Positions 42,423-59,074 of a stretch of DNA of 64,000 nucleotides are shown one piece after another. The position numbers and the translations under genes were made by a program. The notes beneath the pieces are model-generated. The model was not told the DNA's origin and did no database searches. It saw nothing but the letters and a program-made list of their open reading frames with translations. Each line of letters opens with the position of its first letter. Within the stretch, counting starts at the first letter, position 1. This DNA comes from Ectothiorhodospiraceae bacterium BW-2 (GTDB taxonomy: Bacteria > Pseudomonadota > Gammaproteobacteria > Thiohalomonadales > Thiohalomonadaceae): positions 3,930,071-3,994,070 of the forward strand of contig CP032507.1 of NCBI GenBank assembly GCA_008375315.1. Reading direction: 5' to 3'.

Positions 42423-45400
42423 CTACTGTAGATAGACCCACACCCCCTGTCCGGCGGTGATGGTGTTGAGTGAGCCACTGCTGCCGGCCACATCGGCAAA
42501 GCTCCAGCTGTTATTGATAAATGCGAACAGGCGCTGCGGTTGTAGAGCTTGGCTGCTGAATTGGGCGACAAAGTCGGTGACTGTGATATCACTACTGCCA
42601 CTGCCAATCAGATTCCAGCCGGAAGTGAGGGAGCTGATATCGAGGCTCTGACTGCTACCGGTTAGGGTTAGATTAGCACTGCTGCCGGCGGCCACTTTAA
42701 CCCATATACCACGATTACGCAGCTGGCTTAGTGGTAGTTGGCCTAGAGAGCCGTTATTGCTGCTGCGGTCGTAGAACTGCCAGCCGTTGTTGATGAAGGC
42801 AAACAGTCGCTCAATGGCGCTGTCGGTGAAGTGGTCGGCAACGGTGGTGCTATCGTCGGGGGTGGTGTGGAGGGCGATGAGGTTCCAGCCTGCGGTGAGG
42901 TTGAGGGTTTGGCTGTTAGGGGTGTTGGTATCGTTGGCGGTATCGGTGTTGGTATCGGTGTTGGTATCGTTGGCGGTATCGGTCGCGGTATCGGTCGAGG
43001 TCGATGAGCCGGTGTCGGTGGCAGTCTCTGTCGCTGTCTCGGTTGAGGTGGCGCTATCGGTCGATGAGTCTGAGTCGGTATCGGTCGAGGTAGCGGTATT
43101 GTTGTCGGTAGCGCTACTTGTCGGGGTAACGCAGGCGTTGGTCGCGCTACCGGCTGCGGCCTCCTCTAAGGTTGGTAGGTTCAGGAAAAGCCGTTGTGTT
43201 CGTCCTGGTTGTAGGCGTGTTGGTTCGTTTAAGGTGGCATATCCTGCTGCGGCTAGGGTGAGGGTGGTTTCAATGGCTTCTGTCGTGCCCGCTTGGGGGG
43301 TGACTTGTAGCATAAAGCGGCCTCGGTCACTGGTTTGGGTTTCGATACCATTGGCAGAGATGGTGATATTGGCCAGTGGGCTGCTGCGATCGTATGAGAA
43401 TACGATGCCATCGATAATCGCATCGCTGCCGTTGGTGTTGTCAACGCGGAAGTTTTGTACTGGGCTGTGGTTAACCGCGCCGTAGTAGTCGATGGCGCTT
43501 ATTTGCCAGTAGTAGGTGGTTAGGTCGTCGAGTGGGTAGTTGTCATCGATGGCGACAAATGTCTCTGTTAGCTCTTCAAGGGTGTATTGTGGATTGAGTA
43601 GTCTGCCGCTGCTATCGGTCTGTTCGGTTTGACTCAGGCGCAGGGTGTAGCTTAGGGGGTGGTCTTCGGGGTCGTTCGTTTCGCTCCAGCGGGCAATGAG
43701 TTGGCTCTTTTGGGTCGAGTCGTTGGTCGGATAGGTTAGTTGTGGTGCTTCTGGTGGTAGGTTGGCGGCTAGTTGGCGATAGACTAGGCCTCGCCATGGC
43801 GGTGCGAGCCGACCGTCAATATCGTTGACATAGTAGTAGAGTTCGTAGAGCCCCGCTTCGTTAAAGTGGTCTGGGGTAAGGGTAACCTCCCAGCGGCCGT
43901 TGTCGCTGTGATAGATCATGGGGTGACGCGGTAGGTCGAGGGTGACTTGTTCGGTGCTAGCACGGGTGTCAAGGCTGGTCGCTGGGGTTTTAAGCTCTAT
44001 CCAGGCGGCTAGCACTTCGTTGTCGTGGTTCGCTTGGCTCCAGAGGGTGAGGGAGGGGGTCTCATCGTGGAGGTGTTGAGTGGGGGCGATGGCGGTGAGT
44101 TCTGCGGGGTTGTCTGCGCTGTTGGTGTCGTAGTTGGCTCCTACGCCAAGGTAGAGTTGTGCGGCAAGCTCTCCTTCGTTGCAGGCAAGGCTGAAGTCGT
44201 TGGTGCCGTAGCTATCACCGTTATCGTCGAAGAGTGGGTGTTGGACGCTGCGGTCGAACCAGATGTCGGTGCCGCTGCGGTTAAGGCGGTTGTCGGTGGT
44301 GGTGCGTTCGGTCTGTGCGGTGGCGCTGTCAAAGGCGTCGCGGTAGCTCTCGCCCCGTTGTAGCGCGGTGAAGAGGTGTTCGATGAAGAGTTCGCCCACT
44401 CGTATGCCGTCGTTCTCCATGGGGCCTTTGTGGCTCAGTTCGTTGCCGGCGGATGAGGTGATAATGAGTCGGCCGCCGTTGGTGAGTTGGTGGTTGTCGT
44501 ATTGGGGGGCTTGGCTCATTTCGTCGATAAAGCTGCCGGAGTAGCAGGCACCGTAGATGAGGGTGCGGGGGTGTTTGATGGCGGTGGTGGTGAGTTGTTG
44601 CTCTAGTTGGCTTAGGTAGTCGTTTAGTTCTGTGGCGGTTAGGGTTTCGTTACCGAGGTAGAAGAGGTTGGGGTCGCCGTGATCGACCATGACCAGAAGC
44701 AGTGGTGCCGGGGCGCTGTTCATCGCGTCAGCGAGGCTGTTTAGTGCTTGTTGTATGGCTGCTTTCGAGGGGAGGCCATCAATAAAGGGTTGGCCTCTCT
44801 CATCTGTTTGTTGGGGGTCGTAGTTGAGGTAGTGGATATTCTCTGCTTCAAAACCGCGTTCGATGAGGGTGGCATAGACGCGGTTGGTGGTTTTGTTGTG
44901 GGATTGGAGTCCCTCTTCGTTGCCTATTTTGCCTTGAACGATGAGGGCGTAGCCAGCGCCTTGGCCGACGACGATTTCGGTCGTGGCGCGGCTTGCGGCT
45001 AGGAGGGGGGTGGCGGTGGAGTTCGCTTCGATGCGGTAGCGTCCGGCAATGCTAAATAGGTCGGCGCTGCCATCGGGGGTGCGTTGTAGGGTGGTGCTAT
45101 CGAGGCTAAAGTGGCCTAGGGTGTCGTAGGTGTCGAGGTCGTAGTGGTGTTGTGCTAGTTCGGGGGTGGTGACGGTTAGGGTAATTGGGCGGCCAGCCAT
45201 TGAGGCGTCGGTCACTGGTAGGCGGGTCAGTTTACCGCTGATGGAGAGGGTGCCGTTTTGTAGGATGGTACTGGCGCTGGCGGTTAGGGTCAGTTCGGTG
45301 TGGGCTTGGTTGGCCGATTTGGCAAATAGTATTGAGTCGTAGCTTTGGTTGTTTCCTTCGTCGGTAGCGCGGCTGGTGATGGTGTAGGTGTTGCCATCGA

Positions 45401-48400
45401 CTAGGGTGACGCTGCTGCCAGAGATCCCCCAGCTCTGGCTGGTTGCTGAGTAGGTTAGTGGCAGCCATGCCGGTGAGGTTTGCCAATCGTAGCCGCCAAA
45501 TTCACTTGCTCCCCAGTAGAGGGTATTGGGGGTGGTGATGTCGCTAATCTGTACGGCCACTTCTGTCACGCGGCTCTCTGCGTCTGAGGCGGTGACGGTA
45601 ATGGCGGGTAGTAGGGCGGCGGTTTGGCCATCTGTGGGTGAGATGAGGGCCGTGGCGGGCGGTTGATGGTCGGTGACGGTGGTGAGGGTGAGGGTGGTCG
45701 TCGCTTCGGCGGTGTTACCTGAGCTGTCGCTGGCGTTAAAGGTGAGGGGGGTGGTGCCGCTGGCGAAGGTGGCGGGTGCGTTGTGGCTCACGCTTAGGGT
45801 GCCATCGTGGTTGTCGTCGGCGGTGGCGCTGCTGAGGAAGGTGCTGATGCGGTTGTCTGTGGCACTCAGTTCGGTTTGGTTAATGAGGGTGAGTTGGAGC
45901 GGTTCAGGGGGGTTGATTGTTGGTGGTAGGGTGTCGATTACATGGATGTGGCGGGTGGTGCTATTGGCGTTGCCGGCTCTATCTTCGACGGTATAGGTTA
46001 GGGTGTAACTGCCGAGCGCTGCGCTGTTAACGCTACCGATGAGGGTGATTAGGTCGGTGAGGTCGCCGTCAATTGTATCGTTTGCGCTTGCGCCGGGGTC
46101 GGTATAGCTCTCGCCGTAGGGGTGGGTTAGGTCTGTTTCACCATTTAGGGTGAGTGTGGGGGGGGTGAGGTCGGCGATGATAATGACGGCTTGGGCGCTG
46201 CCAGTATTCCCTTGGCTATCGGTTGCGCTGAAGGTGACGGTGGTGCTCCCTAGTGGGAGTTGGTTCGGGGCGTTGTGGCTGATTTGGGTCAAGTCGCCAT
46301 CGATGTTGTCGCTAGCGGTGGCGCTATTGAGGAAGCTGGTAATGGCGCTGTGTGTGGCGGGGGTGCCGGTGGCATCGATAGCGGCCACGGTAATGTTCGC
46401 TGGCGGGGTAACTACGGGGGCGCTGCCATCTTGTACGGTGATAGAGCGGGTGACGGTTTGGGCGGCGTTACCGGCTGCATCGCTGACATTGTAGTTGAGG
46501 GTGTAGAGCCCTACTCGGCTGGTATCGACGCTGCCGCTGAGGGTGATGCGGTTGCTAATATCGCCATCGACATTGTCGCTCGCTGTCGCGCCCTGTTCGG
46601 TGTAGCTTTGGCCGATATTGAGGGTGAGGGCGCTGTTACCGTTCAGGGTGAGGATGGGTTTGGTCTGGTCGGTAACGGTAATTGTGGCTTGGGCACTGCC
46701 TCGATTCCCTTGACTATCGGTCGCGCTAAAGGTGACGACTGTCACGCCTAGTGGGAGTTGGTTCGGGGCGTTGTGGCTGATTTGGGTCAAGTCGCCATCG
46801 ATGTTGTCGCTAGCGGTGGCGCTATTGAGGAAGCTGGTAATGGCGCTGTGTGTGGCGGGGGTGCCGGTGGCATTGCTAGCGGCCACGGTAATGTTCGCTG
46901 GCGGGGTAACTACGGGGGCGCTGCCATCTTGTACGGTGATAGAGCGGGTGACGGTTTGGGCGGCGTTACCGGCTGCGTCGCTGACATTGTAACTGAGGGT
47001 GTAGAGCCCTACTCGGCTGGTATCGACGCTGCCGCTGAGGGTGATGCGGTTGCTAATATCGCCATCGACATTGTCGCTCGCTGTCGCGCCCTGTTCGGTG
47101 TAGCTTTGGCCGATATTGAGGGTGAGGGCGCTGCTACCTGTCAGTGTGATAACCGGCCTGCTCTGGTCTGCCACGGTGACAATGGCCTGCGCCCGACCGG
47201 TATTATTACTACTGTCGGTTGCACTAAAGGTCACGACCGTGGCCCCTAACGGGAAGGTGGTCGGGGCGTTATGGCCAATACTGGTCAGTAGCCCGTCAAC
47301 GGCATCGCTAGCGGTGGCGCTATTGAGGAAGCTGGTAATGGCGCTGTGTGTGGCGGGGGTGCCGGTGGCATCGATAGCGGCCACGGTAATGTTCGCTGGC
47401 GGGGTAACTACGGGGGCGCTGCCATCTTGTACGGTGATAGAGCGGGTGACGGTTTGGGCGGCGTTACCGGCTGCATCGCTGACATTGTAGTTGAGGGTGT
47501 AGAGCCCTACTCGGCTGGTATCGACGCTGCCGCTGAGGGTGATGCGGTTGCTAATATCGCCATCGACATTGTCGCTCGCTGTCGCGCCCTGTTCGGTGTA
47601 GCTTTGGCCGATATTGAGGGTGAGGGCGCTGTTACCGTTCAGGGTGAGGATGGGGTTGGTCTGGTCGGTAACGGTAATTGTGGCTTGGGCACTGCCTCGA
47701 TTCCCTTGACTATCGGTCGCGCTAAAGGTGACGACTGTCACGCCTAGTGGGAGTTGGTTCGGGGCGTTGTGGCTGATTTGGGTCAAGTCGCCATCGATGT
47801 TGTCGCTAGCGGTGGCGCTATTGAGGAAGCTGGTAATGGCGCTGTGTGTGGCGGGGGTGCCGGTGGCATTGCTAGCGGCCACGGTAATGTTCGCTGGCGG
47901 GGTAACTACGGGGGCGCTGCCATCTTGTACGGTGATAGAGCGGGTGACGGTTTGGGCGGCGTTACCGGCTGCATCGCTGACATTGTAACTGAGGGTGTAG
48001 AGCCCTACTCGGCTGGTATCGACGCTGCCGCTGAGGGTGATGCGGTTGCTAATATCGCCATCGACATTGTCGCTCGCTGTCGCGCCCTGTTCGGTGTAGC
48101 TTTGGCCGATATTGAGGGTGAGGGCGCTGTTACCGTTCAGGGTGAGGATGGGTTTGGTCTGGTCGGTAACGGTAATTGTGGCTTGGGCACTGCCTCGATT
48201 CCCTTGACTATCGGTCGCGCTAAAGGTGACGACTGTCACGCCTAGTGGGAGTTGGTTCGGGGCGTTGTGGCTGATTTGGGTCAAGTCGCCATCGATGTTG
48301 TCGCTAGCGGTGGCGCTATTGAGGAAGCTGGTAATGGCGCTGTGTGTGGCGGGGGTGCCGGTGGCATTGCTAGCGGCCACGGTAATGTTCGCTGGCGGGG

Positions 48401-50612
48401 TAACTACGGGGGCGCTGCCATCTTGTACGGTGATAGAGCGGGTGACGGTTTGGGCGGCGTTACCGGCTGCGTCGCTGACATTGTAACTGAGGGTGTAGAG
48501 CCCTACTCGGCTGGTATCGACGCTGCCGCTGAGGGTGATGCGGTTGCTAATATCGCCATCGACATTGTCGCTCGCTGTCGCGCCCTGTTCGGTGTAGCTT
48601 TGGCCGATATTGAGGGTGAGGGCGCTGCTACCTGTCAGTGTGATAACCGGCCTGCTCTGGTCTGCCACGGTGACAATGGCCTGCGCCCGACCGGTATTAT
48701 TACTACTGTCGGTTGCACTAAAGGTCACGACCGTGGCCCCTAACGGGAAGGTGGTCGGGGCGTTATGGCCAATACTGGTCAGTAGCCCGTCAACGGCATC
48801 GCTAGCGGTGGCGCTATTGAGGAAGCTGGTAATGGCGCTGTGTGTGGCGGGGGTGCCGGTGGCATCGATAGCGGCCACGGTAATGTTCGCTGGCGGGGTA
48901 ACTACGGGGGCGCTGCCATCTTGTACGGTGATAGAGCGGGTGACGGTTTGGGCGGCGTTACCGGCTGCATCGCTGACATTGTAGTTGAGGGTGTAGAGCC
49001 CTACTCGGCTGGTATCGACGCTGCCGCTGAGGGTGATGCGGTTGCTAATATCGCCATCGACATTGTCGCTCGCTGTCGCGCCCTGTTCGGTGTAGCTTTG
49101 GCCGATATTGAGGGTGAGGGCGCTGTTACCGTTCAGGGTGAGGATGGGTTTGGTCTGGTCGGTAACGGTAATTGTGGCTTGGGCACTGCCTCGATTCCCT
49201 TGACTATCGGTCGCGCTAAAGGTGACGACTGTCACGCCTAGTGGGAGTTGGTTCGGGGCGTTGTGGCTGATTTGGGTCAAGTCGCCATCGATGTTGTCGC
49301 TAGCGGTGGCGCTATTGAGGAAGCTGGTAATGGCGCTGTGTGTGGCGGGGGTGCCGGTGGCATTGCTAGCGGCCACGGTAATGTTCGCTGGCGGGGTAAC
49401 TACGGGGGCGCTGCCATCTTGTACGGTGATAGAGCGGGTGACGGTTTGGGCGGCGTTACCGGCTGCGTCGCTGACATTGTAACTGAGGGTGTAGAGCCCT
49501 ACTCGGCTGGTATCGACGCTGCCGCTGAGGGTGATGCGGTTGCTAATATCGCCATCGACATTGTCGCTCGCTGTCGCGCCCTGTTCGGTGTAGCTTTGGC
49601 CGATATTGAGGGTGAGACTGCTATTGCCGTTAAGGTTGATTACCGGTTTGATTAGGTCGGTAACGGTGATGTTTGCTGTGGTAGTGCTGACATTGCCGAC
49701 TGAGTCGGTGGCGCGGGCGGTGAGGGTGTAGGCATGGGTGTCTATGAGCGTTACAGAGCTCCCTGACAAGCCCCACTGTTGCAGTGATTCGTCATAGGCA
49801 AGTGGCAGCCATGTCTCAGTCACTATCCAATCGTAAGCGCCAAAAGCGAGACCCCAGTAGTAGGGGGTTGTGTCGGTAACATCGGTAATTTGTACCTCTA
49901 CGGTCACGCTATCACCGCTTTCGTCGCTGGCGGTGACGATAATCGTCGGCAGGCGGTCGTAGCTCTGGCCATCTTGCGGCGAATCGAGGGTGATGGTGGG
50001 GGCTGTGGTGTCGTTTATGGTCATTATCACGCTATCGCTGTTGGTGCTACCGCTGTTGTCGGTCACGCTGAGGGTAAAGGTGAGTTGCGTAGGCGTAGCC
50101 ACTGACGGTGCGCTAAAGCTGGCGTTTAGTGTATTGGCACTGTTTATGGTAACCGTTGGGCTACCGGCTGTTTGGCTCCATGCGATAGAGACAATAGTGC
50201 CATCGGGGTCGCTGGCGGTGCCGCTGAGGGTCACTGTGGTGCCCTCATCTACTTGGCGGTCACTGCCGGCGCTCACGCTCGGCAGGTCGTTACAGGCGAG
50301 TATCTCTTGTTCGGGGTTGGCGATTTCGGGGCAGTTGTCGGAGTTATCCCCTACCCCATCGCTATCGCGGTCACTGGTCTCGTTCGGGTCGTTATCGAAG
50401 GCATCGGCGTTATTGCCTACACCATCGCCATCGCTATCGAGCCACTCATTGGGGTCGTCGGGAAAAGCATCACAGGCATCTCCGGCGCTATCGCCGTCGC
50501 GGTTGGCTTGATTGGAGTTGCTTACGGTACGGCAGTTATCCTCGGCATCGCTTACCCCATCTTCGTCGCTATCCAAATTGCCAAAGTACTGTCCGGCACG
50601 CACCAACCGCAC
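42423..50612 (-). CDS. IS-severed 3' part of giant DGR target: TSP3, HYR repeats, legumain-like protease, GWNL modules
   Basis: A 2729-residue ORF as counted from GTG 50612, though the frame really continues to 50621 and was joined to 52326-52805 before an IS inserted. Order (from GTG): end of a DUF1566 domain (RLVRAGQ, 1-8), thrombospondin type 3 calcium repeats (DSDEDGVSDAEDNC onward, 14-95), a PKD-like domain, seven 166-residue DUF5011+HYR units (about 325-1490), further Ig-like domains, a legumain/caspase-like peptidase C13 domain with VDHG (His near 1977) and GACYSGSF (Cys near 2022), an FN3-like domain, a carboxypeptidase-regulatory-like fold, a Thr/Asp-rich linker, and two GWNL modules at the end. 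It is probably an extracellular protein. Without its original 5' end it lacks a signal peptide and may be silent. Confidence 0.85.
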   Translation of the reverse strand: MRLVRAGQYFGNLDSDEDGVSDAEDNCRTVSNSNQANRDGDSAGDACDAFPDDPNEWLDSDGDGVGNNADAFDNDPNETSDRDSDGVGDNSDNCPEIANPEQEILACNDLPSVSAGSDRQVDEGTTVTLSGTASDPDGTIVSIAWSQTAGSPTVTINSANTLNASFSAPSVATPTQLTFTLSVTDNSGSTNSDSVIMTINDTTAPTITLDSPQDGQSYDRLPTIIVTASDESGDSVTVEVQITDVTDTTPYYWGLAFGAYDWIVTETWLPLAYDESLQQWGLSGSSVTLIDTHAYTLTARATDSVGNVSTTTANITVTDLIKPVINLNGNSSLTLNIGQSYTEQGATASDNVDGDISNRITLSGSVDTSRVGLYTLSYNVSDAAGNAAQTVTRSITVQDGSAPVVTPPANITVAASNATGTPATHSAITSFLNSATASDNIDGDLTQISHNAPNQLPLGVTVVTFSATDSQGNRGSAQATITVTDQTKPILTLNGNSALTLNIGQSYTEQGATASDNVDGDISNRITLSGSVDTSRVGLYTLNYNVSDAAGNAAQTVTRSITVQDGSAPVVTPPANITVAAIDATGTPATHSAITSFLNSATASDAVDGLLTSIGHNAPTTFPLGATVVTFSATDSSNNTGRAQAIVTVADQSRPVITLTGSSALTLNIGQSYTEQGATASDNVDGDISNRITLSGSVDTSRVGLYTLSYNVSDAAGNAAQTVTRSITVQDGSAPVVTPPANITVAASNATGTPATHSAITSFLNSATASDNIDGDLTQISHNAPNQLPLGVTVVTFSATDSQGNRGSAQATITVTDQTKPILTLNGNSALTLNIGQSYTEQGATASDNVDGDISNRITLSGSVDTSRVGLYTLSYNVSDAAGNAAQTVTRSITVQDGSAPVVTPPANITVAASNATGTPATHSAITSFLNSATASDNIDGDLTQISHNAPNQLPLGVTVVTFSATDSQGNRGSAQATITVTDQTNPILTLNGNSALTLNIGQSYTEQGATASDNVDGDISNRITLSGSVDTSRVGLYTLNYNVSDAAGNAAQTVTRSITVQDGSAPVVTPPANITVAAIDATGTPATHSAITSFLNSATASDAVDGLLTSIGHNAPTTFPLGATVVTFSATDSSNNTGRAQAIVTVADQSRPVITLTGSSALTLNIGQSYTEQGATASDNVDGDISNRITLSGSVDTSRVGLYTLSYNVSDAAGNAAQTVTRSITVQDGSAPVVTPPANITVAASNATGTPATHSAITSFLNSATASDNIDGDLTQISHNAPNQLPLGVTVVTFSATDSQGNRGSAQATITVTDQTKPILTLNGNSALTLNIGQSYTEQGATASDNVDGDISNRITLSGSVDTSRVGLYTLNYNVSDAAGNAAQTVTRSITVQDGSAPVVTPPANITVAAIDATGTPATHSAITSFLNSATASDNIDGDLTQISHNAPNQLPLGSTTVTFSATDSQGNTGSAQAVIIIADLTPPTLTLNGETDLTHPYGESYTDPGASANDTIDGDLTDLITLIGSVNSAALGSYTLTYTVEDRAGNANSTTRHIHVIDTLPPTINPPEPLQLTLINQTELSATDNRISTFLSSATADDNHDGTLSVSHNAPATFASGTTPLTFNASDSSGNTAEATTTLTLTTVTDHQPPATALISPTDGQTAALLPAITVTASDAESRVTEVAVQISDITTPNTLYWGASEFGGYDWQTSPAWLPLTYSATSQSWGISGSSVTLVDGNTYTITSRATDEGNNQSYDSILFAKSANQAHTELTLTASASTILQNGTLSISGKLTRLPVTDASMAGRPITLTVTTPELAQHHYDLDTYDTLGHFSLDSTTLQRTPDGSADLFSIAGRYRIEANSTATPLLAASRATTEIVVGQGAGYALIVQGKIGNEEGLQSHNKTTNRVYATLIERGFEAENIHYLNYDPQQTDERGQPFIDGLPSKAAIQQALNSLADAMNSAPAPLLLVMVDHGDPNLFYLGNETLTATELNDYLSQLEQQLTTTAIKHPRTLIYGACYSGSFIDEMSQAPQYDNHQLTNGGRLIITSSAGNELSHKGPMENDGIRVGELFIEHLFTALQRGESYRDAFDSATAQTERTTTDNRLNRSGTDIWFDRSVQHPLFDDNGDSYGTNDFSLACNEGELAAQLYLGVGANYDTNSADNPAELTAIAPTQHLHDETPSLTLWSQANHDNEVLAAWIELKTPATSLDTRASTEQVTLDLPRHPMIYHSDNGRWEVTLTPDHFNEAGLYELYYYVNDIDGRLAPPWRGLVYRQLAANLPPEAPQLTYPTNDSTQKSQLIARWSETNDPEDHPLSYTLRLSQTEQTDSSGRLLNPQYTLEELTETFVAIDDNYPLDDLTTYYWQISAIDYYGAVNHSPVQNFRVDNTNGSDAIIDGIVFSYDRSSPLANITISANGIETQTSDRGRFMLQVTPQAGTTEAIETTLTLAAAGYATLNEPTRLQPGRTQRLFLNLPTLEEAAAGSATNACVTPTSSATDNNTATSTDTDSDSSTDSATSTETATETATDTGSSTSTDTATDTANDTNTDTNTDTANDTNTPNSQTLNLTAGWNLIALHTTPDDSTTVADHFTDSAIERLFAFINNGWQFYDRSSNNGSLGQLPLSQLRNRGIWVKVAAGSSANLTLTGSSQSLDISSLTSGWNLIGSGSSDITVTDFVAQFSSQALQPQRLFAFINNSWSFADVAGSSGSLNTITAGQGVWVYLQ
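46150..49640 (-). repeat. 498-bp tandem repeat array, about 7 units (DUF5011 + HYR)
   Basis: The unit recurs every 498 bases (46260, 46758, 47256, 47754, 48252, 48750, 49248), encoding 166 residues: one DUF5011-like domain (SLTLNIGQSYTEQGATASD) plus one HYR domain (APVVTPPANITV). Two unit versions alternate irregularly; one has NIDGDLTQISHNAPNQLPLG and the other AVDGLLTSIGHNAPTTFPLG. The block 47116-47750 is repeated almost exactly at 48610-49240, so a three-unit, 1494-base block was duplicated. Confidence 0.93.
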
Positions 50613-50629: not shown

Positions 50630-52325
50630 CAGCAATTCAGGGGCAGCTCCATAACCGACTAACTTCATAAACTTACATTGGCAAAAAAATTATTTTTTCC
50701 AGCAAAAATAGCCCATATATCTCCAATTTTGAGAGGTAACCGCATGTCAACTGCACGAAAATCAGCTTCGAACCAATCCGTCCGGTCTAAAAAAAGAATC
50801 GGAATAAACGTAAATTACAGCGCAAAGATGTCGTCTATCAACTCCACCTGACCATCACACACTTCTTTCCTGCTCTCTTTGAGCAGATGAGAGAGCTGGA
50901 TGAGTGCCGGACATCTACTAATTATGATTTGGCGGCTCTTATTACGGCCTGCATTGCCATGTTTCTCTTTAAAGCCGGTTCTCGTAATGAAATGAATAAT
51001 CTGCGCGAAGAGAAACGCTTTCGCAAAAACTACCAGCGGTTGTTCAAAATGCCGCTACCTCATATGGATACCGTCGATAATGTCATGCGACAACTCACGG
51101 AGGATCAACTGCAAAAACTGACTCAATCCATGGTTAGGGCGCTGTTGAAAAAGAAGATATTCCACAATCAACGGCTGTTTGGTGAATGGTTTGTCATTGC
51201 GGTGGATGCGAGCGGGATTCATAGTTTTACAGAGTGTCCCCATGAACAGGCGCTGCACAAAGACTACAGCAGCGGTAAAAGTAGCTGGCATAACATGGTT
51301 TTAGAGGCCAAACTGATTACCGCTAACGGCTTCGCCATCTCCATTGCCACAGAGTGGCTGGAAAACCCCGAAGAGGGCAACTATGACAAACAGGATTGTG
51401 AGCGTAAGGCATTCAAACGCCTAGCAAAAAAGTTGAAATCGGCGTTTCCGCGTCTACCCATCTGTCTGGTTGCCGATGGACTCTATCCTTATCAGGGATT
51501 CTTCGAAATTTGCTCAGAGTATGGTTGGGGCTGGATAGTCACCTTCAAGGATGGCAATCTGCCATCTGTTTGGGAAGAGGTTAAATCCTTGTGCCAGTTA
51601 ACATCCGGCAATCAACGAAAAATCATTCTACGGCAACAGGATAATGTCATTGAGCAAAACTATACATGGATTAACGATATTGACTATCATGGCGTGAAAC
51701 TACACTGGCTGGAATGCATAGAGACAACCACCGACAAAGAGGGGCAGATAATTGAAAATCGGTTCGTTCACATTAGCTCCTATCCCATCAACTGGAATAC
51801 GGCACCGGAATTGAGCCGTACCGGACGCTTACGCTGGAAAATAGAGAACGAAGGCTTTAATACCCAAAAAAATCATGGATATGCATTAGAGCACAAATTT
51901 TCACGGGTGAGTTATCTGGCGACCAAGAATTACTACCAGTGCTTGCAAATAGCTCACATCATCAATCAGTTACTGGTATTTAGCAAGACATTTCAAAGTG
52001 TTATGCAGGGGAAGATGACCTTAAAGCGCATCTGGGGAAAGATGATTGCCGTTATGACTGAACGAAAACTGTCGGTAACGAAATTAGCCCAACTCACCGG
52101 GCGCCCCTGCCAGATTCGACTCATCAATTAAAAGACGATGGAGATCCCCGCTCCGAAATTCGGGATAACCCTCATTACACACTGGAGACAAGCTCACTCA
52201 ACACCGCTGTACAATTTGAAATAGTTGACTTTTCAACAAGGAAATGTTGAGAAGAGGGGGGGTATTGTCGCCAAGAAAGCAAGGCTATGTAGTGATGCTG
52301 GTTTGGCGGTGACTCTGAATTGCTG
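50630..52325 (+). mobile_element. Insertion sequence, 1696 bp, 8-bp target duplication
   Basis: The ends are defined by CAGCAATTCAG at 50630-50640 and its reverse complement at 52315-52325. Imperfect matching continues inward to about 28 bases (the next bases GGGCAGCTCCATAACC and AGTCACCGCCAAACC agree at most positions). The direct duplication ATTATCGC flanks the element. It carries one DDE transposase gene on the plus strand. I cannot assign the IS family with certainty. The insertion lies inside VR2 of a DGR target gene. Confidence 0.92.
50744..52131 (+). CDS. IS transposase (DDE type), probable -1 frameshift near its start
   Basis: The main ORF (from ATG 50887, 414 residues) has DDE-type motifs: VIAVDASGIHSF, CLVADGLYPYQG and WKIENEGFNTQKNHGY. 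Sequence upstream in the same frame (LQRKDVVYQLHLTITHFFPALFEQM) clearly belongs to the protein but has no start before a stop at 50788. A good start does exist at ATG 50744, with a GAGAGG ribosome site, in the other frame; it reads MSTARKSASNQ and meets the main frame by a -1 shift on the A7G run at 50789-50796. Programmed slippage, common in IS elements, or a simple mutation would both explain this. The coordinates given include the upstream piece. Confidence 0.82.
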
Positions 52326-52805
52326 ATTATCGCGATTGTCGTTGACATCGTCGCCATAGCTGAAGTAGAGTTGCCACGCATTGAAAGAGTTGAAAGCGTA
52401 CGGCGACGAACTCCAGTAAACGCTGGTGCCATTATTGGGAAACAGGGTTTCGTTAATCGCCGGGCTGACACACGCCTCCTCCACCAGTGATGCCAGTTCG
52501 GTAATATTGGGCAGACGCCAGTCACTATAACCGGCAAAGCCGCCACTGCTGTTAAGCGTTTGCGGCCTTTGTAGCGCAGCATCCCAGGTCATTGAGGCGG
52601 CGCTACCACTGCCACAGTCACTGCCACTGAGCCCCACGGCGCACTGTTGCCACATCAACCCCGTCTGCAGGTCGGTGACAGTGCCATCGCCATTGGCGCT
52701 GTAGCGGCTATCGGGAGCGGTCGGTGTGATATCGTCAATACAGCTTTGGGCGACACTGTTTTGGATGACAAGTAGTAACAGCAGCGGGGAGAGGATGCGA
52801 AACAT
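52233..52805 (-). CDS. 5' part of giant DGR target: secreted DUF1566 (C-type lectin-like) domain, severed by the IS
   Basis: Start chosen at ATG 52805 (MFRILSPLLLLLVIQNSVAQ, a signal peptide), preceded by a GGAG ribosome site overlapping the end of the reverse transcriptase gene; a TTG five codons upstream is less likely. The DUF1566/Lcl domain shows TGLMWQQC, GYSDWRLPNITELASLV and YWSSSPYAFNSFNAW. Genuine sequence ends at 52326; the last residues (QFRVTAKPASLH onward) are read from the IS. Joining 52326 to 50621 gives DNRDNSYRVRLVRAGQYFGN in frame with the giant ORF, 2892 residues in total. Confidence 0.88.
   Translation of the reverse strand: MFRILSPLLLLLVIQNSVAQSCIDDITPTAPDSRYSANGDGTVTDLQTGLMWQQCAVGLSGSDCGSGSAASMTWDAALQRPQTLNSSGGFAGYSDWRLPNITELASLVEEACVSPAINETLFPNNGTSVYWSSSPYAFNSFNAWQLYFSYGDDVNDNRDNQQFRVTAKPASLHSLAFLATIPPLFSTFPC
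52326..52333. repeat. Target-site duplication, right (ATTATCGC)
   Basis: This is the right copy of the eight bases duplicated on IS insertion; the left copy is at 50622-50629. Confidence 0.92.
52334..52416 (-). other. DGR variable repeat VR2, 5' part
   Basis: These 83 bases align without gaps to TR 54417-54499 with 12 differences, every one at a position where the TR coding strand has A. Together with 50593-50629 it makes 120 bases, the TR length. It encodes the WSSSPYAFNSFNAW to DVNDNR stretch of the DUF1566 domain. Confidence 0.95.
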
Positions 52806-52807
52806 GA

Positions 52808-54370
52808 CTATAGGCTCCAAGGGGTTGAAACAGGGGGGAGTTGTTCAGTTAAAGGGATTCCCGGGTGAATCAGGCGGGTATAGCGGCGCTTTAGTCCGCA
52901 GCGCAAATAGCCCGCCTCCACCACCAGCCGATAGCCGATACCCGCCTGCTCTAACAGATAGCGTATCGGCATTAGCTTAGGGTGCTCCGGCTCTAACGGT
53001 TCGGGCAAGCGAGTTAGCAGCGTTAGCGTGGCATTAAAAGGGGGGCGCGTCTCACTATCGAGCGACCTATGTAACCTATTAGCCAGCAGGCGGGCGTGGC
53101 GGTTAAAGAGTTGCAGCGTGTTACCAACCTGCATTAGCACCAAAAAACGCGGTGTTTGGCGGGCAACAAAGTGCCACTGCTGCTTAAGGGAGAGCGCCTT
53201 GCTCGCCTGCCAGCGAGGATAGAGCTTTGCCCCACGCTCATCATAAGCAAGCAGATAGCGTAACCACGGAAACCGCTGCCAAATGCGCTGCTGTAAATGG
53301 TAGCTATTAGCGTGACGGCAATGGCCTAAGTAGCTAGCCATCACCGACCGCAATGATTCGAGCTGAGCCAAATTAAACTGTAGCGGCTGCCTCGCTTCGA
53401 GCTGTTGCAGTTTTTCGCGCCAGTTTCCCACTACCCGCCGCCGCACTAAACGATAATTAGGACGAACAATATAGCCCAAAAAATCGGCCCCATCTCTTAG
53501 CGGTTTTGCCGTCGCTCCGTGCTTGAGTGCCAACCCTAGTCGCTGATGAACAAACTGCTCAATAACGACCTGCCACTCCAGAAGCTGTTGCCGGTCAGGA
53601 TGAAGCAGCACAAAATCATCAACAAACCGCAGGTAGTAGCGGCATTTGAGCTGATGTTTAATGTATTGGTCTAGCTCATTCAGATAAACATTGGCAAAAA
53701 ACTGGCTTGTCAGATTACCAATAGGCAACCCCCGTTCCTCACCCGCCTCACTCAGGCGTTTATGCTTAGGGACTTGTGCATACGCCGCCAGAGCGCCACG
53801 ATAGTGGGCGTGATAGGCGGGATTCCCGGTTAATAGAGTGCGAGTTAACCAAAGTAGCTGTTGCCGTAACACTGGCTCATCTACCCGTCGTTGTAGCTGC
53901 CGCTCAACAAGCGCGTAGAGTCGCCGCCGATGGATGGTATTAAAAAAGTTGGCAATATCGAGCTGCAGAAACCAACCGCCCCCTTGCGCTTGCAGCGAAC
54001 GCATAAAGTGCTGCAATCGTTCAACGGCTTTGTGCGTCCCCTTCTCTTTACGATTGGAGTAGAGGTCATATATCCATATCGGCTCATACAACCGCTCTAG
54101 CTGGGGCACCAGCAGATGGTGCACAACCCGGTCGGCAAAGGCTGCGGCATGAATCTCTCGCGCCTTAGGTTTTTTGACCACAAAACAGTAAGAGGTGGAG
54201 GGGGTATATTGCCACTGCTGACACTGCTGCTGTGTCGCTAGCAGATTATCGAATAGCTGCATATCGTAACGCTGGGCATCGCGACTGCCTCGCTTGCGGC
54301 GGCGACAGTTTTCATACGCTTGCCAAAACGCTTGCAACGAGAAGAGCTCGCACTCTGCCGGCATCACCAT
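52808..54370 (-). CDS. DGR reverse transcriptase with C-terminal MutS-I-like extension
   Basis: A 520-residue protein. Reverse transcriptase motifs: LQLDIANFFNTI (catalytic Asp near 136), GLPIGNLTSQFFANVYLNELD with the DGR-type IGxxxSQ signature, and YLRFVDDFVLLH (catalytic DD near 250). DGR enzymes copy TR RNA with errors at adenines and deliver the product to VRs with help from Avd. The region after about 400 is extra for the family. It reads PRFLVLMQVGNTLQLFNRHA, then GIGYRLVVEAGYL, then RRYTRLIHPG, resembling MutS domain I from start to end. MutS-like accessory proteins are known near some DGRs; here the domain appears fused. The gene starts ten bases after TR. Confidence 0.93.
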   Translation of the reverse strand: MVMPAECELFSLQAFWQAYENCRRRKRGSRDAQRYDMQLFDNLLATQQQCQQWQYTPSTSYCFVVKKPKAREIHAAAFADRVVHHLLVPQLERLYEPIWIYDLYSNRKEKGTHKAVERLQHFMRSLQAQGGGWFLQLDIANFFNTIHRRRLYALVERQLQRRVDEPVLRQQLLWLTRTLLTGNPAYHAHYRGALAAYAQVPKHKRLSEAGEERGLPIGNLTSQFFANVYLNELDQYIKHQLKCRYYLRFVDDFVLLHPDRQQLLEWQVVIEQFVHQRLGLALKHGATAKPLRDGADFLGYIVRPNYRLVRRRVVGNWREKLQQLEARQPLQFNLAQLESLRSVMASYLGHCRHANSYHLQQRIWQRFPWLRYLLAYDERGAKLYPRWQASKALSLKQQWHFVARQTPRFLVLMQVGNTLQLFNRHARLLANRLHRSLDSETRPPFNATLTLLTRLPEPLEPEHPKLMPIRYLLEQAGIGYRLVVEAGYLRCGLKRRYTRLIHPGIPLTEQLPPVSTPWSL

Positions 54371-54379
54371 CGATACGCT

Positions 54380-54499
54380 CCGGCACGCACCAACCGCACG
54401 CGATAACTATTATTGCGATTGTTGTTGTTATCGTTGCCATTGTTGAAGTTGAGTTGCCACGCATTGTTAGAGTTGTTAGCGTTCGGCGACGAACTCCAG
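54380..54499 (-). ncRNA. DGR template repeat (TR)
   Basis: These 120 bases lie between avd and the reverse transcriptase and align without gaps to VR1 (55101-55220) and to the rejoined VR2. All 24 differences are at template adenines (36 of the 120 TR positions are A on the coding strand); 14 are A-to-T, 10 are A-to-G, none A-to-C. Read as protein it would be packed with Asn codons (NANNSNNAW, NNGNDNNNNRNN), the usual DGR design in which AAC or AAT codons are diversified. It is expected to act as RNA; the short frame across it is not thought to be translated. Confidence 0.95.
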
Positions 54500-54659: not shown

Positions 54660-55031
54660 TCACTGTTGACGACCATTTTGGGCAGCGTGCAGATGACGCA
54701 ACCACCCTCCACTCTGTTTACCCACGCTCACAGCTAATTCGACGCAGCGCTGAAACTGGGCAAAATTTTGAAATGCTTTTAACGATTTGGCTAGCTGAAT
54801 CATGACCTTTAACTCATCCACTTCCAAGCTTAACTGCTCAATGTGTTGCGGCTGCTGAGGTCTCTGGTTAGCCGCTAACACAATTTGACGACAGAGCGCC
54901 ATCGCCTGACGGCGCATATCGGTGCCGATAGCATATTTATGGTAACGAGGAAAGCGAGCCACCGCCTGCTCTATCTCCAAAAGTAGCTGGTTAGCATCAC
55001 GCCATATTGGCAATTTTAAATGATGTGCCAT
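54660..55031 (-). CDS. avd: DGR accessory variability determinant Avd
   Basis: A 123-residue basic, all-helical protein of the Avd/four-helix-bundle family, with the typical ARFPRYHKYAIGTDMRRQAM segment (about 25-45). Avd pentamers bind the reverse transcriptase and TR RNA. It sits between target 1 and TR, as in the Bordetella phage and many bacterial DGRs. The ATG has a GGGGTG ribosome site. Confidence 0.92.
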   Translation of the reverse strand: MAHHLKLPIWRDANQLLLEIEQAVARFPRYHKYAIGTDMRRQAMALCRQIVLAANQRPQQPQHIEQLSLEVDELKVMIQLAKSLKAFQNFAQFQRCVELAVSVGKQSGGWLRHLHAAQNGRQQ

Positions 55032-55093: not shown

Positions 55094-55801
55094 TTACTGT
55101 CCGGCACGCACCAACCGCACGCGATAACTATTATTGCGATTGAAGTTGTCATCGTTGCCATTGATGAAGTTGAGTAGCCACGCATAGCCAGAGCCGTTAG
55201 CGTACGGCGACGAACTCCAGTAAGCGCTACCAACCGCATTAGGAAAATAGGCACTATCGATAGCAGGATTGACACGACCATAGTTAACAATGGAACGCAG
55301 CTCCTCTTTGGAGGGGACGCGCCAGTCACTATAGCCGCAAAAACTGGCGTTATTAGCACCATCCACCAGTGCATCCCAGTCGTCATAACGGGGGCCAAAA
55401 GTGCTGCCATCGCTTAAGCGTGCCGTTTTGCCCCCCCAGCGATAGGTATTGTCTTTATCGTGGATGCCACCATCGTCGGTTTTGACCTCCCACATCAGAC
55501 CGGTGACATTATCTTTAACACAACTCCACTCAGTCGCACTGGCGGATAGCTCTTCGCCGGTGGCGCTGATTTTGGTAAAACTAAATCCGGCGTGGCCATT
55601 GCTATCATCATTAGTTGCAGGGTCAGCATCGCGACCGTGGGAGCAGTCCTGCTCGGTGACCGTTTCACCGATGCAGGTGGCGTTGTTGCCGGATGAGTAG
55701 TTACCCCCCCAAGTGATACCGGTATCGTTAAGGGGTTGAGTGAACCACTCAGCGTGGAGTGTAAAGGGAATGAGCAGCAGATAGAGCACGACGGCAGGCA
55801 T
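55094..55801 (-). CDS. DGR target protein 1: secreted DUF1566 domain carrying VR1
   Basis: A 235-residue protein with a short signal peptide (VVLYLLLIPFTLHA) and one DUF1566/Lcl C-type-lectin-like domain: TGLMWEVKTDDG, GYSDWRVPSKEELRSIV, YWSSSPYANGSGYAW, ending NNSYRVRLVRAGQ. The diversified residues lie in its C-terminus, the normal place for a DGR target. The stop is a TAA immediately after GQ; target 2 has TAC there and continues as YFGN, and the following 15 or so bases are also similar, so this may be a truncated relative of a longer protein. It is first in the presumed target-avd-TR-RT operon. Confidence 0.93.
   Translation of the reverse strand: MPAVVLYLLLIPFTLHAEWFTQPLNDTGITWGGNYSSGNNATCIGETVTEQDCSHGRDADPATNDDSNGHAGFSFTKISATGEELSASATEWSCVKDNVTGLMWEVKTDDGGIHDKDNTYRWGGKTARLSDGSTFGPRYDDWDALVDGANNASFCGYSDWRVPSKEELRSIVNYGRVNPAIDSAYFPNAVGSAYWSSSPYANGSGYAWLLNFINGNDDNFNRNNSYRVRLVRAGQ
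55101..55220 (-). other. DGR variable repeat VR1
   Basis: These 120 bases align without gaps to TR with 11 differences, all at template adenines. The 3' 42 coding bases (55101-55142) are identical to TR and include the homing-initiation end. Amino-acid outcome: Asn positions of TR become Tyr, Gly, Ile, Asp, Phe and others in the ligand-facing part of the DUF1566 fold. Confidence 0.96.
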
Positions 55802-56290: not shown

Positions 56291-59074
56291 ATGGTTATGA
56301 AAAAACATCTCTATCTTCATCTCTACCTCTATCTTGGCCTGTTATGGGTCATACTCTCACCTATCCATGTGTTAGCGCTAACCTGTATGCCTACGATTGA
56401 ATCCGACACTAATGCCTCACCCCCGGTTGCCTATCTTACGACTACCACCCACGCCTCAGGCGCAACAGATGAAACCGCGATACTGCTTCGAGCCGGACGA
56501 GATAACCCATACTTTAGCATTTCGATAGAAACGAGACCTTATAGTTCAGAGAGTGATCTCATCGACTTAACCGCGTTAGAGACCCGCCTCAAACAGGACT
56601 ATCGGACTGACCACTCCACACGGGTGAACTCGATAGATGAGCTTGAGAGTCAGCACAACTGGCAGTGGCAAATTCTAGCAGGAGCCCAAATTAGGATTAT
56701 CGATAACACCCGTGAAGAACTAATTACCTACGACCGGCAGACGAGTGATAGCCTAGGTGCCTTTGCCACTATCGATCCCTATCAGGCACTACCCCTACAA
56801 CAGAGCTTGGAGTACTACCTACAGCAACTGATTCACTATGGCTATCCCGGCAGCCCCTACCCGCTCGATATTGATCTCTATGTCAGAACCCCAACCGGCT
56901 GGCAACGCGGTTCGAATGGCGTGCGCTTTATTGCCGTAGGTAACAGCGTTAACAGCGAACCGGCGACAATTCCGGGACTGCATGATCGCCCCATCCCGAT
57001 AGAGCGAGGCTATTACGGCCTCGATGCGCAAGAAGCCTATGCGTTGAACACTAAACTCAACCATAACTGCTACCTAATCACCAGCCTCGAACAGGGGAGT
57101 CTAATGCAGCAAAATGTGGGCGGGGGGCTCTACGACTACGCCTTTGTCATGAAGCGGATAGCTCCGCCTAGTGACTATCTCCCCCCTTCAACGACCCACA
57201 GAGAGCTCCCCCTAAACGACAGTGGAGTGACCTGGGGAGCCGATACAACAACGGGTAACGAAACCCAATGCGGCAGTCATCATCGTAACCAAGATTGTAG
57301 CCATGGCCGAGATGCTGAAGTAAACGATAGTCGTGATGGAGCAGCTGGGTTTAGCTTTACCAAAATAGCCACCGATGGTAGTGAACTCGCGGCTAGCGCT
57401 ACCGAATGGGCCTGTGTGCGCGATAATCATACCGGTCTGCTATGGCAAGTGATGCCGCATCGCGATAACAGATACCGCTGGGGCGGTCTAACGGCCCTAA
57501 TCAAACAAGAGGGGGAGCACGGCACACGCTATCACGACTGGAATGAGCTCATTGAGGGAGCCCGAGAACAACAGCTCTGCGGCCAACGAGAGTGGCGCCT
57601 ACCGAGTCGGGAAGAGCTTCGCTCCATTATCGACTATGGCCGCTCCAACCCAGCTATTGATAGCGACTACTTTCCCGATACCGTCTCTGATCTCTACTGG
57701 AGCGCCAATGCCGTAGCCAACCTAGCCGGTTCAGCTTGGGCGCTCGATATGTGGCATGGCTATGATGTTACCCGAGCCGTTGAAGAGAGCCATTCGGTAC
57801 GCTTGGTACACGATAGTCGCTGGGGATTTGACTTCGAACCGGAAGGTTCTGGCAGTAGCTGCTCCGATACGCTGATTGCCATGGCACCCGATATACGCTA
57901 CCAACCGCTGGATAACCACTTAGTGCTAGATAAACAGAACGATTTGATCTGGCAAGCGTGTCTTTTGGGAACCAGTGGTAGCAGTTGCAGCGAGGGCACC
58001 GCACAAACGCTTACTTGGGGGGAGGCGTTACAAGCGGTGGACGACAGCAACAGTAGCGGCAGCGGCGGCTATGACGACTGGCGACTCCCCTCGATTAAAG
58101 AGCTAGCGTCACTCATTGAACCGGCCTGTGAGATGCCGGCGATTAACCTAACTCTATTTCCCGGCAGTGATTTCGATCTACTCTGGTCCTCTACTCCCGC
58201 AGATAACGCCCCCGACTATAGTTGGGTTGTCGATTTTAGATATGGCGAGGTAGGCTACTACTTAGGAGATCGAAGTGACCGCCAAAAGGTACGGTTGGTC
58301 AGAAGCGCGACTGCGACAGAGACAGCAACCGATTCAGGTAGTGGTAGTGCGACAGGGACAGAGACCGACACCTCAATAATAATCACCACCACTGACACCG
58401 ATACTAGTACGGGAATTGATACGGGTACGGCAACGGACAGCGATAGCAATACAGATACAGACACAGATACAGACACAGATACGGACACAGATACAGACAC
58501 AGATACGGACACAGATACGGACACAGATACAGACACAGACACAGCGGCCAATACCGACACGACCGCCCCCCTCGGTACTCAAACTCTCTCACTAGCCGAA
58601 GGATGGAATCTTATCGCGCTACACACTACCCCTGATGATCTCACCACCGTTGCCGACCACTTTACCGATCCGGCTATTGAGCGAATCTTTGCCTTTATCG
58701 ATAACAGCTGGGCTTTCTATGATCTCACGAGTAGGAGTGGCGCATTGGGCACTAAAACCCTCACTGAGCTGCGTAATCGGGGATTATGGGTAAAAATAGC
58801 CGTTGCTAGCCGTACCGAGATGAGACTCAGTGGCAGCAGCAGTCAGAGTCTGGATATCGCCACACTCAGCGCCGGTTGGAATCTGGTTGGAGCGGGTCGT
58901 AGCGATATCACCCTTACCGATTTTGTAGATCAATTCAGCCATCAAACTCTGCAACCACAACGACTCTTCGCCTTTAGCGATAATAGCTGGAGCTTTAGAG
59001 ATGTCGCCAGTGGTAGTGGTACACTCACCACCCTTGCCGCCGGTCAAGGGGTGTGGATCTATATGGCCGAGTAG
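56291..59074 (+). CDS. Secreted protein with two DUF1566 domains, Asp-Thr linker and two GWNL modules
   Basis: A 927-residue protein. ATG 56291 or the ATG two codons later opens a signal peptide (LYLGLLWVILSPIHVLA). Order: an unnamed domain (about 35-295, ending GGLYDYAFVMKRIA) also found in the 59130-62805 protein; DUF1566 domain 1 (about 300-515) resembling DGR target 1 in LNDSGVTWGADTTTGN and DCSHGRDAE; DUF1566 domain 2 (about 530-675) resembling DGR target 2; a Thr/Asp repeat linker (about 676-760); and paired modules GWNLIALHTTPDDLTTVADHF and GWNLVGAGRSDITLTDF. It has no nucleotide-level match to TR, so it is not a current DGR target. Its TAG stop lies within a dispersed palindrome. Function unknown; the layout suggests a surface-binding protein. 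Confidence 0.85.
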   Translation: MVMKKHLYLHLYLYLGLLWVILSPIHVLALTCMPTIESDTNASPPVAYLTTTTHASGATDETAILLRAGRDNPYFSISIETRPYSSESDLIDLTALETRLKQDYRTDHSTRVNSIDELESQHNWQWQILAGAQIRIIDNTREELITYDRQTSDSLGAFATIDPYQALPLQQSLEYYLQQLIHYGYPGSPYPLDIDLYVRTPTGWQRGSNGVRFIAVGNSVNSEPATIPGLHDRPIPIERGYYGLDAQEAYALNTKLNHNCYLITSLEQGSLMQQNVGGGLYDYAFVMKRIAPPSDYLPPSTTHRELPLNDSGVTWGADTTTGNETQCGSHHRNQDCSHGRDAEVNDSRDGAAGFSFTKIATDGSELAASATEWACVRDNHTGLLWQVMPHRDNRYRWGGLTALIKQEGEHGTRYHDWNELIEGAREQQLCGQREWRLPSREELRSIIDYGRSNPAIDSDYFPDTVSDLYWSANAVANLAGSAWALDMWHGYDVTRAVEESHSVRLVHDSRWGFDFEPEGSGSSCSDTLIAMAPDIRYQPLDNHLVLDKQNDLIWQACLLGTSGSSCSEGTAQTLTWGEALQAVDDSNSSGSGGYDDWRLPSIKELASLIEPACEMPAINLTLFPGSDFDLLWSSTPADNAPDYSWVVDFRYGEVGYYLGDRSDRQKVRLVRSATATETATDSGSGSATGTETDTSIIITTTDTDTSTGIDTGTATDSDSNTDTDTDTDTDTDTDTDTDTDTDTDTDTDTDTAANTDTTAPLGTQTLSLAEGWNLIALHTTPDDLTTVADHFTDPAIERIFAFIDNSWAFYDLTSRSGALGTKTLTELRNRGLWVKIAVASRTEMRLSGSSSQSLDIATLSAGWNLVGAGRSDITLTDFVDQFSHQTLQPQRLFAFSDNSWSFRDVASGSGTLTTLAAGQGVWIYMAE
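58451..58545 (+). repeat. Asp-Thr codon repeat
   Basis: A run of GACACAGATAC-type six-base units encodes about 15 Asp-Thr dipeptides in the linker before the GWNL modules. A related but less regular Thr/Asp/Ser linker occurs at the same place in the giant DGR target (about 42910-43120). Confidence 0.9.

What the first reader, a model, noticed from the sequence alone, without database searches (positions are those of the whole stretch)
52808..54370. Reverse transcriptase fused to a MutS-domain-I-like extension
The RT has 520 residues, longer than most DGR enzymes. Its last ~120 residues follow the order of MutS domain I: a PRFLVLMQVGNTLQLF start (compare the family's RxGdFYElF), a GIGYRLVVEAGYL centre and an RRYTRLIHPG end (compare vkRxvTPGT). 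Separate MutS-like accessory proteins have been reported beside some DGRs. A fusion suggests the mismatch-type domain acts directly on TR/VR heteroduplexes or cDNA, which is inference.
Basis: partly seen in the sequence, partly recalled or inferred. Interest (0 to 1): 0.8.

Follow-up and report, generated by a model that had tools for sequence, protein, structure and literature searches.

The report
Mutating reverse transcriptase with MutS domain
An enzyme that bacteria use to mutate one of their own surface-type genes on purpose carries, fused to its end, the DNA-gripping domain of the mismatch-repair protein MutS, but with the residues that read mismatches replaced, so it probably grips nucleic acid rather than detecting errors.

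Summary
The ORF (minus strand, 52808-54370) is the reverse transcriptase of a complete diversity-generating retroelement (DGR). Residues 7-376 match the whole BPP-1 DGR RT (Z 31). The extra ~130 residues fold as MutS domain I: every leading PDB match of the predicted domain is MutS/MSH (Z 9.6-13; the next protein 3.0). Pfam misses it in this sequence, but a chain of profiles links it to MutS, and 31 of 54 related RT tails score as MutS_I directly.

The fusion is neither unique nor rare. It occurs in 49 of the 80 nearest chromosomal RTs (Proteobacteria, Desulfobacterota, Nitrospirota and others) and in 0 of the 80 nearest viral ones.

The proposed mismatch action is not supported for this protein. 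The Phe-x-Glu mismatch reader is replaced (Thr-Leu-Gln). An aromatic-x-Glu pair is kept in 27 of 30 tails outside this clade and 0 of 24 inside it, where a conserved basic motif (ExGxLxxGLKRR) appears instead. Most likely the domain is a backbone-gripping clamp behind the RT thumb; this is inferred.

A separate MutS-like (MSL) DGR accessory is known, but no paper I could read describes the fusion. Novelty: new variant of a known kind.

The parts
52808..54370 (-). DGR reverse transcriptase with C-terminal MutS domain I-like extension, 520 aa
   Evidence: ORF; Pfam RVT_1 E 2.2e-16; full-length AF2 model pLDDT 92, pTM 0.86
53243..54352 (-). RT core, residues 7-376, equivalent to the whole BPP-1 bRT; SQ motif IGNLTSQ 217-223, catalytic D138, D251, D252
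   Evidence: VIA-align vs 8ub7_A Z 31.1, rmsd 2.1, 318 aligned; invariant columns
52850..53209 (-). MutS domain I-like domain, about residues 388-507
   Evidence: AF2 model and PDB comparison, MutS/MSH Z 9.6-13; profile chain
53111..53119 (-). position of the MutS Phe-x-Glu mismatch reader, here Thr418-Leu419-Gln420
   Evidence: alignment anchored on invariant Gly416
52883..52918 (-). clade-specific basic motif ExGxLxxGLKRR, residues 485-496
   Evidence: 17 of 24 in this clade vs 1 of 30 outside; Arg496 conserved in nearly all
54379..54499 (-). template repeat (TR), 121 nt
   Evidence: all VR differences fall at TR adenines
54660..55031 (-). Avd accessory protein, 123 aa
   Evidence: Pfam bAvd E 1e-12, over cut-off; NCBIfam DivGenRetAVD E 4.5e-13, 49 bits, under its cut-off of 80
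55094..55801 (-). target gene 1 (Lcl_C fold), VR1 at 55100-55220
   Evidence: Pfam Lcl_C E 4.4e-32; 11 of 11 VR differences at TR adenines
52326..52820 (-). target gene 2, 5' part: Lcl_C domain with VR2, interrupted by the IS element
   Evidence: Pfam Lcl_C E 9.3e-35; 13 of 13 VR differences at TR adenines across the empty site
50630..52325 (+). insertion sequence, 1696 bp, inside VR2; end repeats CAGCAATTCAG/CTGAATTGCTG, 8-bp target duplication ATTATCGC; transposase 50887-52131
42423..50612 (-). target gene 2, 3' part: giant repeat-rich protein cut off from its Lcl_C head by the IS
   Evidence: ORF 2729 aa; reading frame continuous across the empty site

Best explanation
The protein is the error-prone RT of a chromosomal DGR, with a MutS domain I homologue fused directly behind the thumb. 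In this RT clade the domain has kept the fold but lost the Phe-x-Glu mismatch reader; it is strongly basic and has its own conserved ExGxLxxGLKRR hairpin. It most likely works as a nucleic-acid backbone clamp next to the thumb that holds the template RNA, the RNA-cDNA hybrid or the cDNA end during mutagenic reverse transcription or hand-over to the target, alongside Avd. Shown: the DGR, the fusion, the fold (on a predicted model), the motif loss, the basic charge and the purifying selection. Inferred: that it binds nucleic acid, which one, and at which step.
For: The DGR is complete and has been active: TR, Avd and two local VRs with 11/11 and 13/13 differences at TR adenines, plus remote VRs 1.17 Mb away, one with 10/10. 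Fold: only MutS/MSH domain I at the top, Z 13.0-9.6 vs 3.0 for the next protein. Homology chain. The domain is an addition to a complete DGR RT. Aromatic-x-Glu kept in 0/24 tails of this clade vs 27/30 outside; domain pI 10.9 against 5.1-8.1 in MutS domain I; the clade motif. The domain is kept under selection: tail dN/dS 0.13 for L017/L019 in this clade, 0.19-0.34 in four pairs outside it. In MutS most DNA contacts are to the backbone, and MSH2 and MSH3 also lack Phe-x-Glu (PMC3848065), so a non-reading domain I is a known state of the fold. Avd was found beside 50 of 56 fused RTs, so the domain is not simply an Avd substitute.
Against: No binding data exist. I could not inspect the coordinates, so whether the basic face points at the hybrid exit path is untested. 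The RT core is itself basic (pI 9.9), so a basic pI is weak evidence. The domain evolves faster than the core (window vs L014: 29% vs 62% identity). A clade of 22 phage and Xanthomonadales-type RTs nested inside this lineage lacks the domain, so it is dispensable there.
Confidence: 0.55

Rival explanations
1. The domain reads mismatches: it recognises mispairs at mutated adenines in the RNA-cDNA hybrid or the cDNA-VR heteroduplex, to mark, stabilise or shield them from host mismatch repair.
For: Domain I is the mismatch-binding domain of MutS. Most fused tails outside this clade keep aromatic-x-Glu (27/30). In a reconstituted DGR, mutS was deleted on the ground that this should help preserve DGR substitutions (PMC12875486).
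Against: Both reading residues are replaced in the window protein and none of 24 clade members keeps the pair. F36A and E38Q each destroy mismatch discrimination in MutS. Mismatch repair by MutS also needs dimerisation and the ATPase domains, which are absent.
Confidence: 0.15
2. The domain is a docking module for a protein or for the structured TR RNA (Avd, the spacer RNA, or a host recombination factor), with no role in binding the duplex.
For: Loss of the mismatch reader together with a new conserved surface motif fits a changed partner. A separate MutS-like DGR accessory (MSL, PF01624) exists elsewhere (PMC10053308).
Against: Avd genes lie beside both fused and non-fused RTs (50/56 and 29/29), so the domain does not track Avd presence. 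The high pI is more typical of nucleic-acid contact.
Confidence: 0.2
3. The domain is a decaying relic with little function in this clade.
For: Reader lost, faster divergence than the core, a shortened version in the paralogous RT of the same genome (L002) and complete absence in the nested 22-row clade.
Against: Fold predicted with high confidence, conserved clade motif, tail dN/dS 0.13.
Confidence: 0.1

Closest known systems
BPP-1 (Bordetella phage) DGR reverse transcriptase bRT, PDB 8ub7
   Same: Residues 7-376 align over the whole bRT (Z 31.1, rmsd 2.1); same TR/VR/Avd logic and adenine-specific changes
   Different: bRT ends at residue 328, where the window protein continues with a MutS domain I-like domain
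MSL, the MutS-like DGR accessory protein (PF01624)
   Same: Same domain family, associated with DGRs (PMC10053308)
   Different: Listed there as an accessory protein; here the domain is part of the RT, and in this clade the mismatch reader is gone. The original description (Wu et al. 2018, known to me only from memory) could not be read here
MutS / MSH domain I
   Same: Fold and element order; Q398 and G416 correspond to invariant MutS residues
   Different: No connector, core, lever, clamp or ATPase domains; Phe-x-Glu replaced by Thr-x-Gln; strongly basic
MSH2/MSH3 domain I
   Same: Also lack Phe-x-Glu (PMC3848065)
   Different: Eukaryotic, part of MutS heterodimers; the resemblance is an analogy, not shown descent

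Membership tests
Diversity-generating retroelement | TR and VR repeats whose differences lie at TR adenines | tested here: met
   11/11 and 13/13 local, 10/10 remote
Diversity-generating retroelement | RT, TR and accessory gene next to the target | tested here: met
   order target 1, avd, TR, RT, target 2 within 52.3-55.8 kb
DGR reverse transcriptase | (I/V/L)GxxxSQ motif and catalytic aspartates | tested here: met
   IGNLTSQ 217-223; D138, D251, D252 invariant; motif definition PMC3521204
DGR reverse transcriptase | fold of a solved DGR RT | tested here: met
   8ub7_A Z 31.1, on a predicted model
MutS domain I (PF01624) | single-sequence match over the Pfam cut-off | tested here: not met
   no MutS_I match for the window sequence; 31 of 54 related tails match at E <= 0.1, best 3.2e-15
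MutS domain I (PF01624) | homology by profile-profile comparison | tested here: met
   99.2% to FxE-type fused tails, which match MutS at 98.3%; direct 85%, E 5.9e-6
MutS domain I (PF01624) | domain I fold | tested here: met
   43 MutS/MSH entries at Z 9.6-13, next 3.0, on a predicted model
Mismatch-reading MutS domain I | Phe-x-Glu motif | tested here: not met
   Thr418-Leu-Gln420 in the window; 0 of 24 in the clade
MutS mismatch-repair protein | core, clamp and ATPase domains | tested here: not met
   protein ends about 15 residues after domain I; the genome's own MutS is elsewhere
MSL accessory protein | separate ORF beside a DGR RT | tested here: not met
   the domain is in the RT reading frame
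Nucleic-acid-binding function | measured affinity for hybrid, duplex or RNA | not testable with these tools
   needs purified protein

The most novel reading that the evidence does not exclude
DGR reverse transcriptases fused to an FxE-bearing MutS domain I bind the mispairs they have just made at template adenines, holding or shielding the mutagenised hybrid or heteroduplex from host mismatch repair until it is copied into the target. The window's lineage has since converted that domain into a mismatch-blind clamp, and a phage-associated lineage dropped it.
Probability: 0.22. Interest if true: 0.85.

Novelty: new variant of a known kind. Interest (0 to 1): 0.6.

Why it matters
How mutagenised DGR cDNA is handed to the target gene, and how its substitutions survive mismatch repair, is open. 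An RT that carries a MutS domain I links the mutating enzyme to mismatch biology, and the family contains natural versions with an intact reader, a lost reader, a shortened domain and no domain. That makes the question testable with a few point mutants and swaps in a laboratory strain. It also shows that family scans miss the domain in members like this one, so RT-MutS_I fusions are probably under-counted.

Tried and rejected
Pfam, NCBIfam and PHROGs scans of the window RT alone did not show the domain. A sequence search of the PDB found only RTs with confidence. Rejected: that the tail is a chance resemblance (shuffles, structure, reciprocal profile search); that it is a generic fold shared with many proteins (the next fold, tRNA-splicing endonuclease, is at Z 3.0); that it replaces Avd (Avd lies beside 50/56 fused RTs); that it is a phage feature (0 of 80 viral loci carry it; no alignment listed for the phage and plasmid collections passes residue 385). 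Viral-contig scans with single tails gave no relatives, but they reach close relatives only. I found no standalone MSL gene beside non-fused RTs in the loci held, apart from a split RT in L083; fused loci gave an extra ORF in L082 and a fragment in L057. No held paper that I searched or read describes an RT-MutS_I fusion; PMC10053308 says some DGR-linked Pfams are domains fused to RT without naming them, and its supplement could not be read.

Full report
What is there. The finding's ORF lies on the minus strand at 52808-54370 and encodes 520 residues. It is the RT of a complete DGR. Reading on the minus strand, the order is target 1 (55801-55094, Lcl_C fold), avd (55031-54660), TR (54499-54379), RT (54370-52808) and target 2 (from 52820). 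The 121-nt TR differs from VR1 at 11 positions and from VR2 at 13, all TR adenines. Two more VRs lie 1.17 Mb away; the one I aligned differs at 10 positions, again all adenines. So the system has been active. VR2 is interrupted by a 1696-bp insertion sequence (50630-52325) with an 8-bp target duplication; the frame is continuous across the empty site.

I collected related RTs from genome and viral contigs and cut out the tails beyond the RT core. Of 54 tails, 31 match Pfam MutS_I at E <= 0.1, best 3.2e-15. The window tail matches an HMM of 24 of the other tails at 16.0 bits (E 1.2e-5 in a set of 30); the best of 600 shuffled tails reaches 7.7 bits. Profile-profile comparison gives 99.2% between window-type tails and the FxE-type tails, 98.3% between those and genuine MutS, and 85% (E 5.9e-6) between window-type tails and MutS directly. 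A profile of fused tails used on 398 whole genomes hits 375 of them, almost always in frames of MutS length; in the window's own genome the top hit is its MutS. I read these hits as MutS from frame length and this one coincidence, not by annotation.

Structure. AlphaFold2 on residues 373-520 gives pLDDT 85.6 and the order helix, strand, strand, helix, strand, helix, strand, strand. Foldseek lists MutS and MSH chains in all 50 top ranks. VIA-align gives 43 MutS/MSH entries at Z 13.0-9.6 and then a drop to 3.0. The full-length model has pLDDT 92 and pTM 0.86; residues 7-376 align with the entire BPP-1 DGR RT (8ub7) at Z 31.1, rmsd 2.1. The MutS-like domain is therefore an addition to a complete DGR RT, directly behind the thumb. 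These are predicted models.

How widespread. Of the 80 best genome-contig loci, 49 have an RT with the domain by HMM; they include Gamma- and Betaproteobacteria, Desulfobacterota, Nitrospirota, Spirochaetes and KSB1. This set is ranked by likeness to a fused query, so it over-states the share. In an evenly drawn sample of 369 Gammaproteobacteria, nine genomes have such an RT and roughly half of the dozen or so RT genes are fused. Of the 80 best viral contigs none has it, and none of the listed alignments to phage (121 records matched) or plasmid records (56) passes residue 385.

What changed in this lineage. In E. coli MutS, Phe36 and Glu38 read the mismatch; F36A abolishes specific binding and E38Q abolishes discrimination, while most other contacts are to the backbone, and MSH2 and MSH3 lack the motif (PMC3848065). 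Aligned on the invariant Gly416, the window has Thr418 and Gln420. An aromatic-x-Glu pair is kept in 27 of 30 tails outside the window's RT clade and in 0 of 24 inside it. Instead the clade has ExGxLxxGLKRR (17 of 24, against 1 of 30 outside). The window domain has pI 10.9; fused tails in general are basic (9.0-11.9), while MutS domain I is at 5.1-8.1. On a tree of the RT core the window clade (46 rows) has support 100/100, and within it lies a 100/100 clade of 22 RTs, phage and Xanthomonadales types among them, with no domain. The second fused RT of this genome (L002) has a shortened tail. The tail is under purifying selection (dN/dS 0.13 for L017/L019 in this clade; 0.19-0.34 in four outside pairs; the others have high or saturated synonymous divergence), though less than the core.

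How it most likely works. Shown: a DGR RT with a retained, basic, mismatch-blind MutS domain I behind the thumb. Inferred: that it grips the backbone of the template RNA, the hybrid or the cDNA. Avd lies beside 50 of 56 fused RTs, so it is not a simple Avd substitute.

Known or new. A MutS-like accessory, MSL (PF01624), is reported beside some DGRs (PMC10053308); the original survey is not in the library and I know it only from memory. No paper I could search or read describes the fusion or the loss of the mismatch reader. That is absence from a partial library, not proof of priority. I file it as a new variant of a known kind, a DGR RT with a fused MSL-type domain.

Noticed in passing
window 50630-52325: A 1696-bp insertion sequence with an 8-bp target duplication (ATTATCGC) sits inside the variable repeat of the second DGR target and cuts a giant target protein in two.
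   Followed up: yes
window 42423-50612: The 3' part of target 2 is a 2729-aa ORF of near-identical tandem repeats ending in Ser/Thr/Asp-rich stretches; the long ORFs on the opposite strand mirror its repeats.
   Followed up: no
window 56291-59074: A 927-aa protein in which two Lcl_C-like stretches and a long Thr-Asp repeat tract can be seen by eye; the TR search found no variable repeat in it.
   Followed up: partly
L234 (VR 1501-1621) and L236; genome 2812713-2813348: Two remote variable repeats 1.17 Mb from the template repeat; the one aligned has 10 of 10 changes at TR adenines, so this DGR seems to act in trans.
   Followed up: partly
L002 1318-2952: A second fused DGR RT in the same genome whose MutS-like tail is shortened, with the GLKRR end kept and part of the middle missing.
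   Followed up: partly
L003 and L004 (genome 996-997 kb and 868 kb): Two further DGR-type RTs (343 and 362 aa open frames) without the extension in the same genome.
   Followed up: no
L083 3938-5523: RT and MutS-like domain lie in two overlapping frames, as if a fused gene were split by a frameshift or sequencing error.
   Followed up: no
L082 2176-2496: A separate 107-aa MutS-like ORF upstream of an RT that also carries the fused domain.
   Followed up: no
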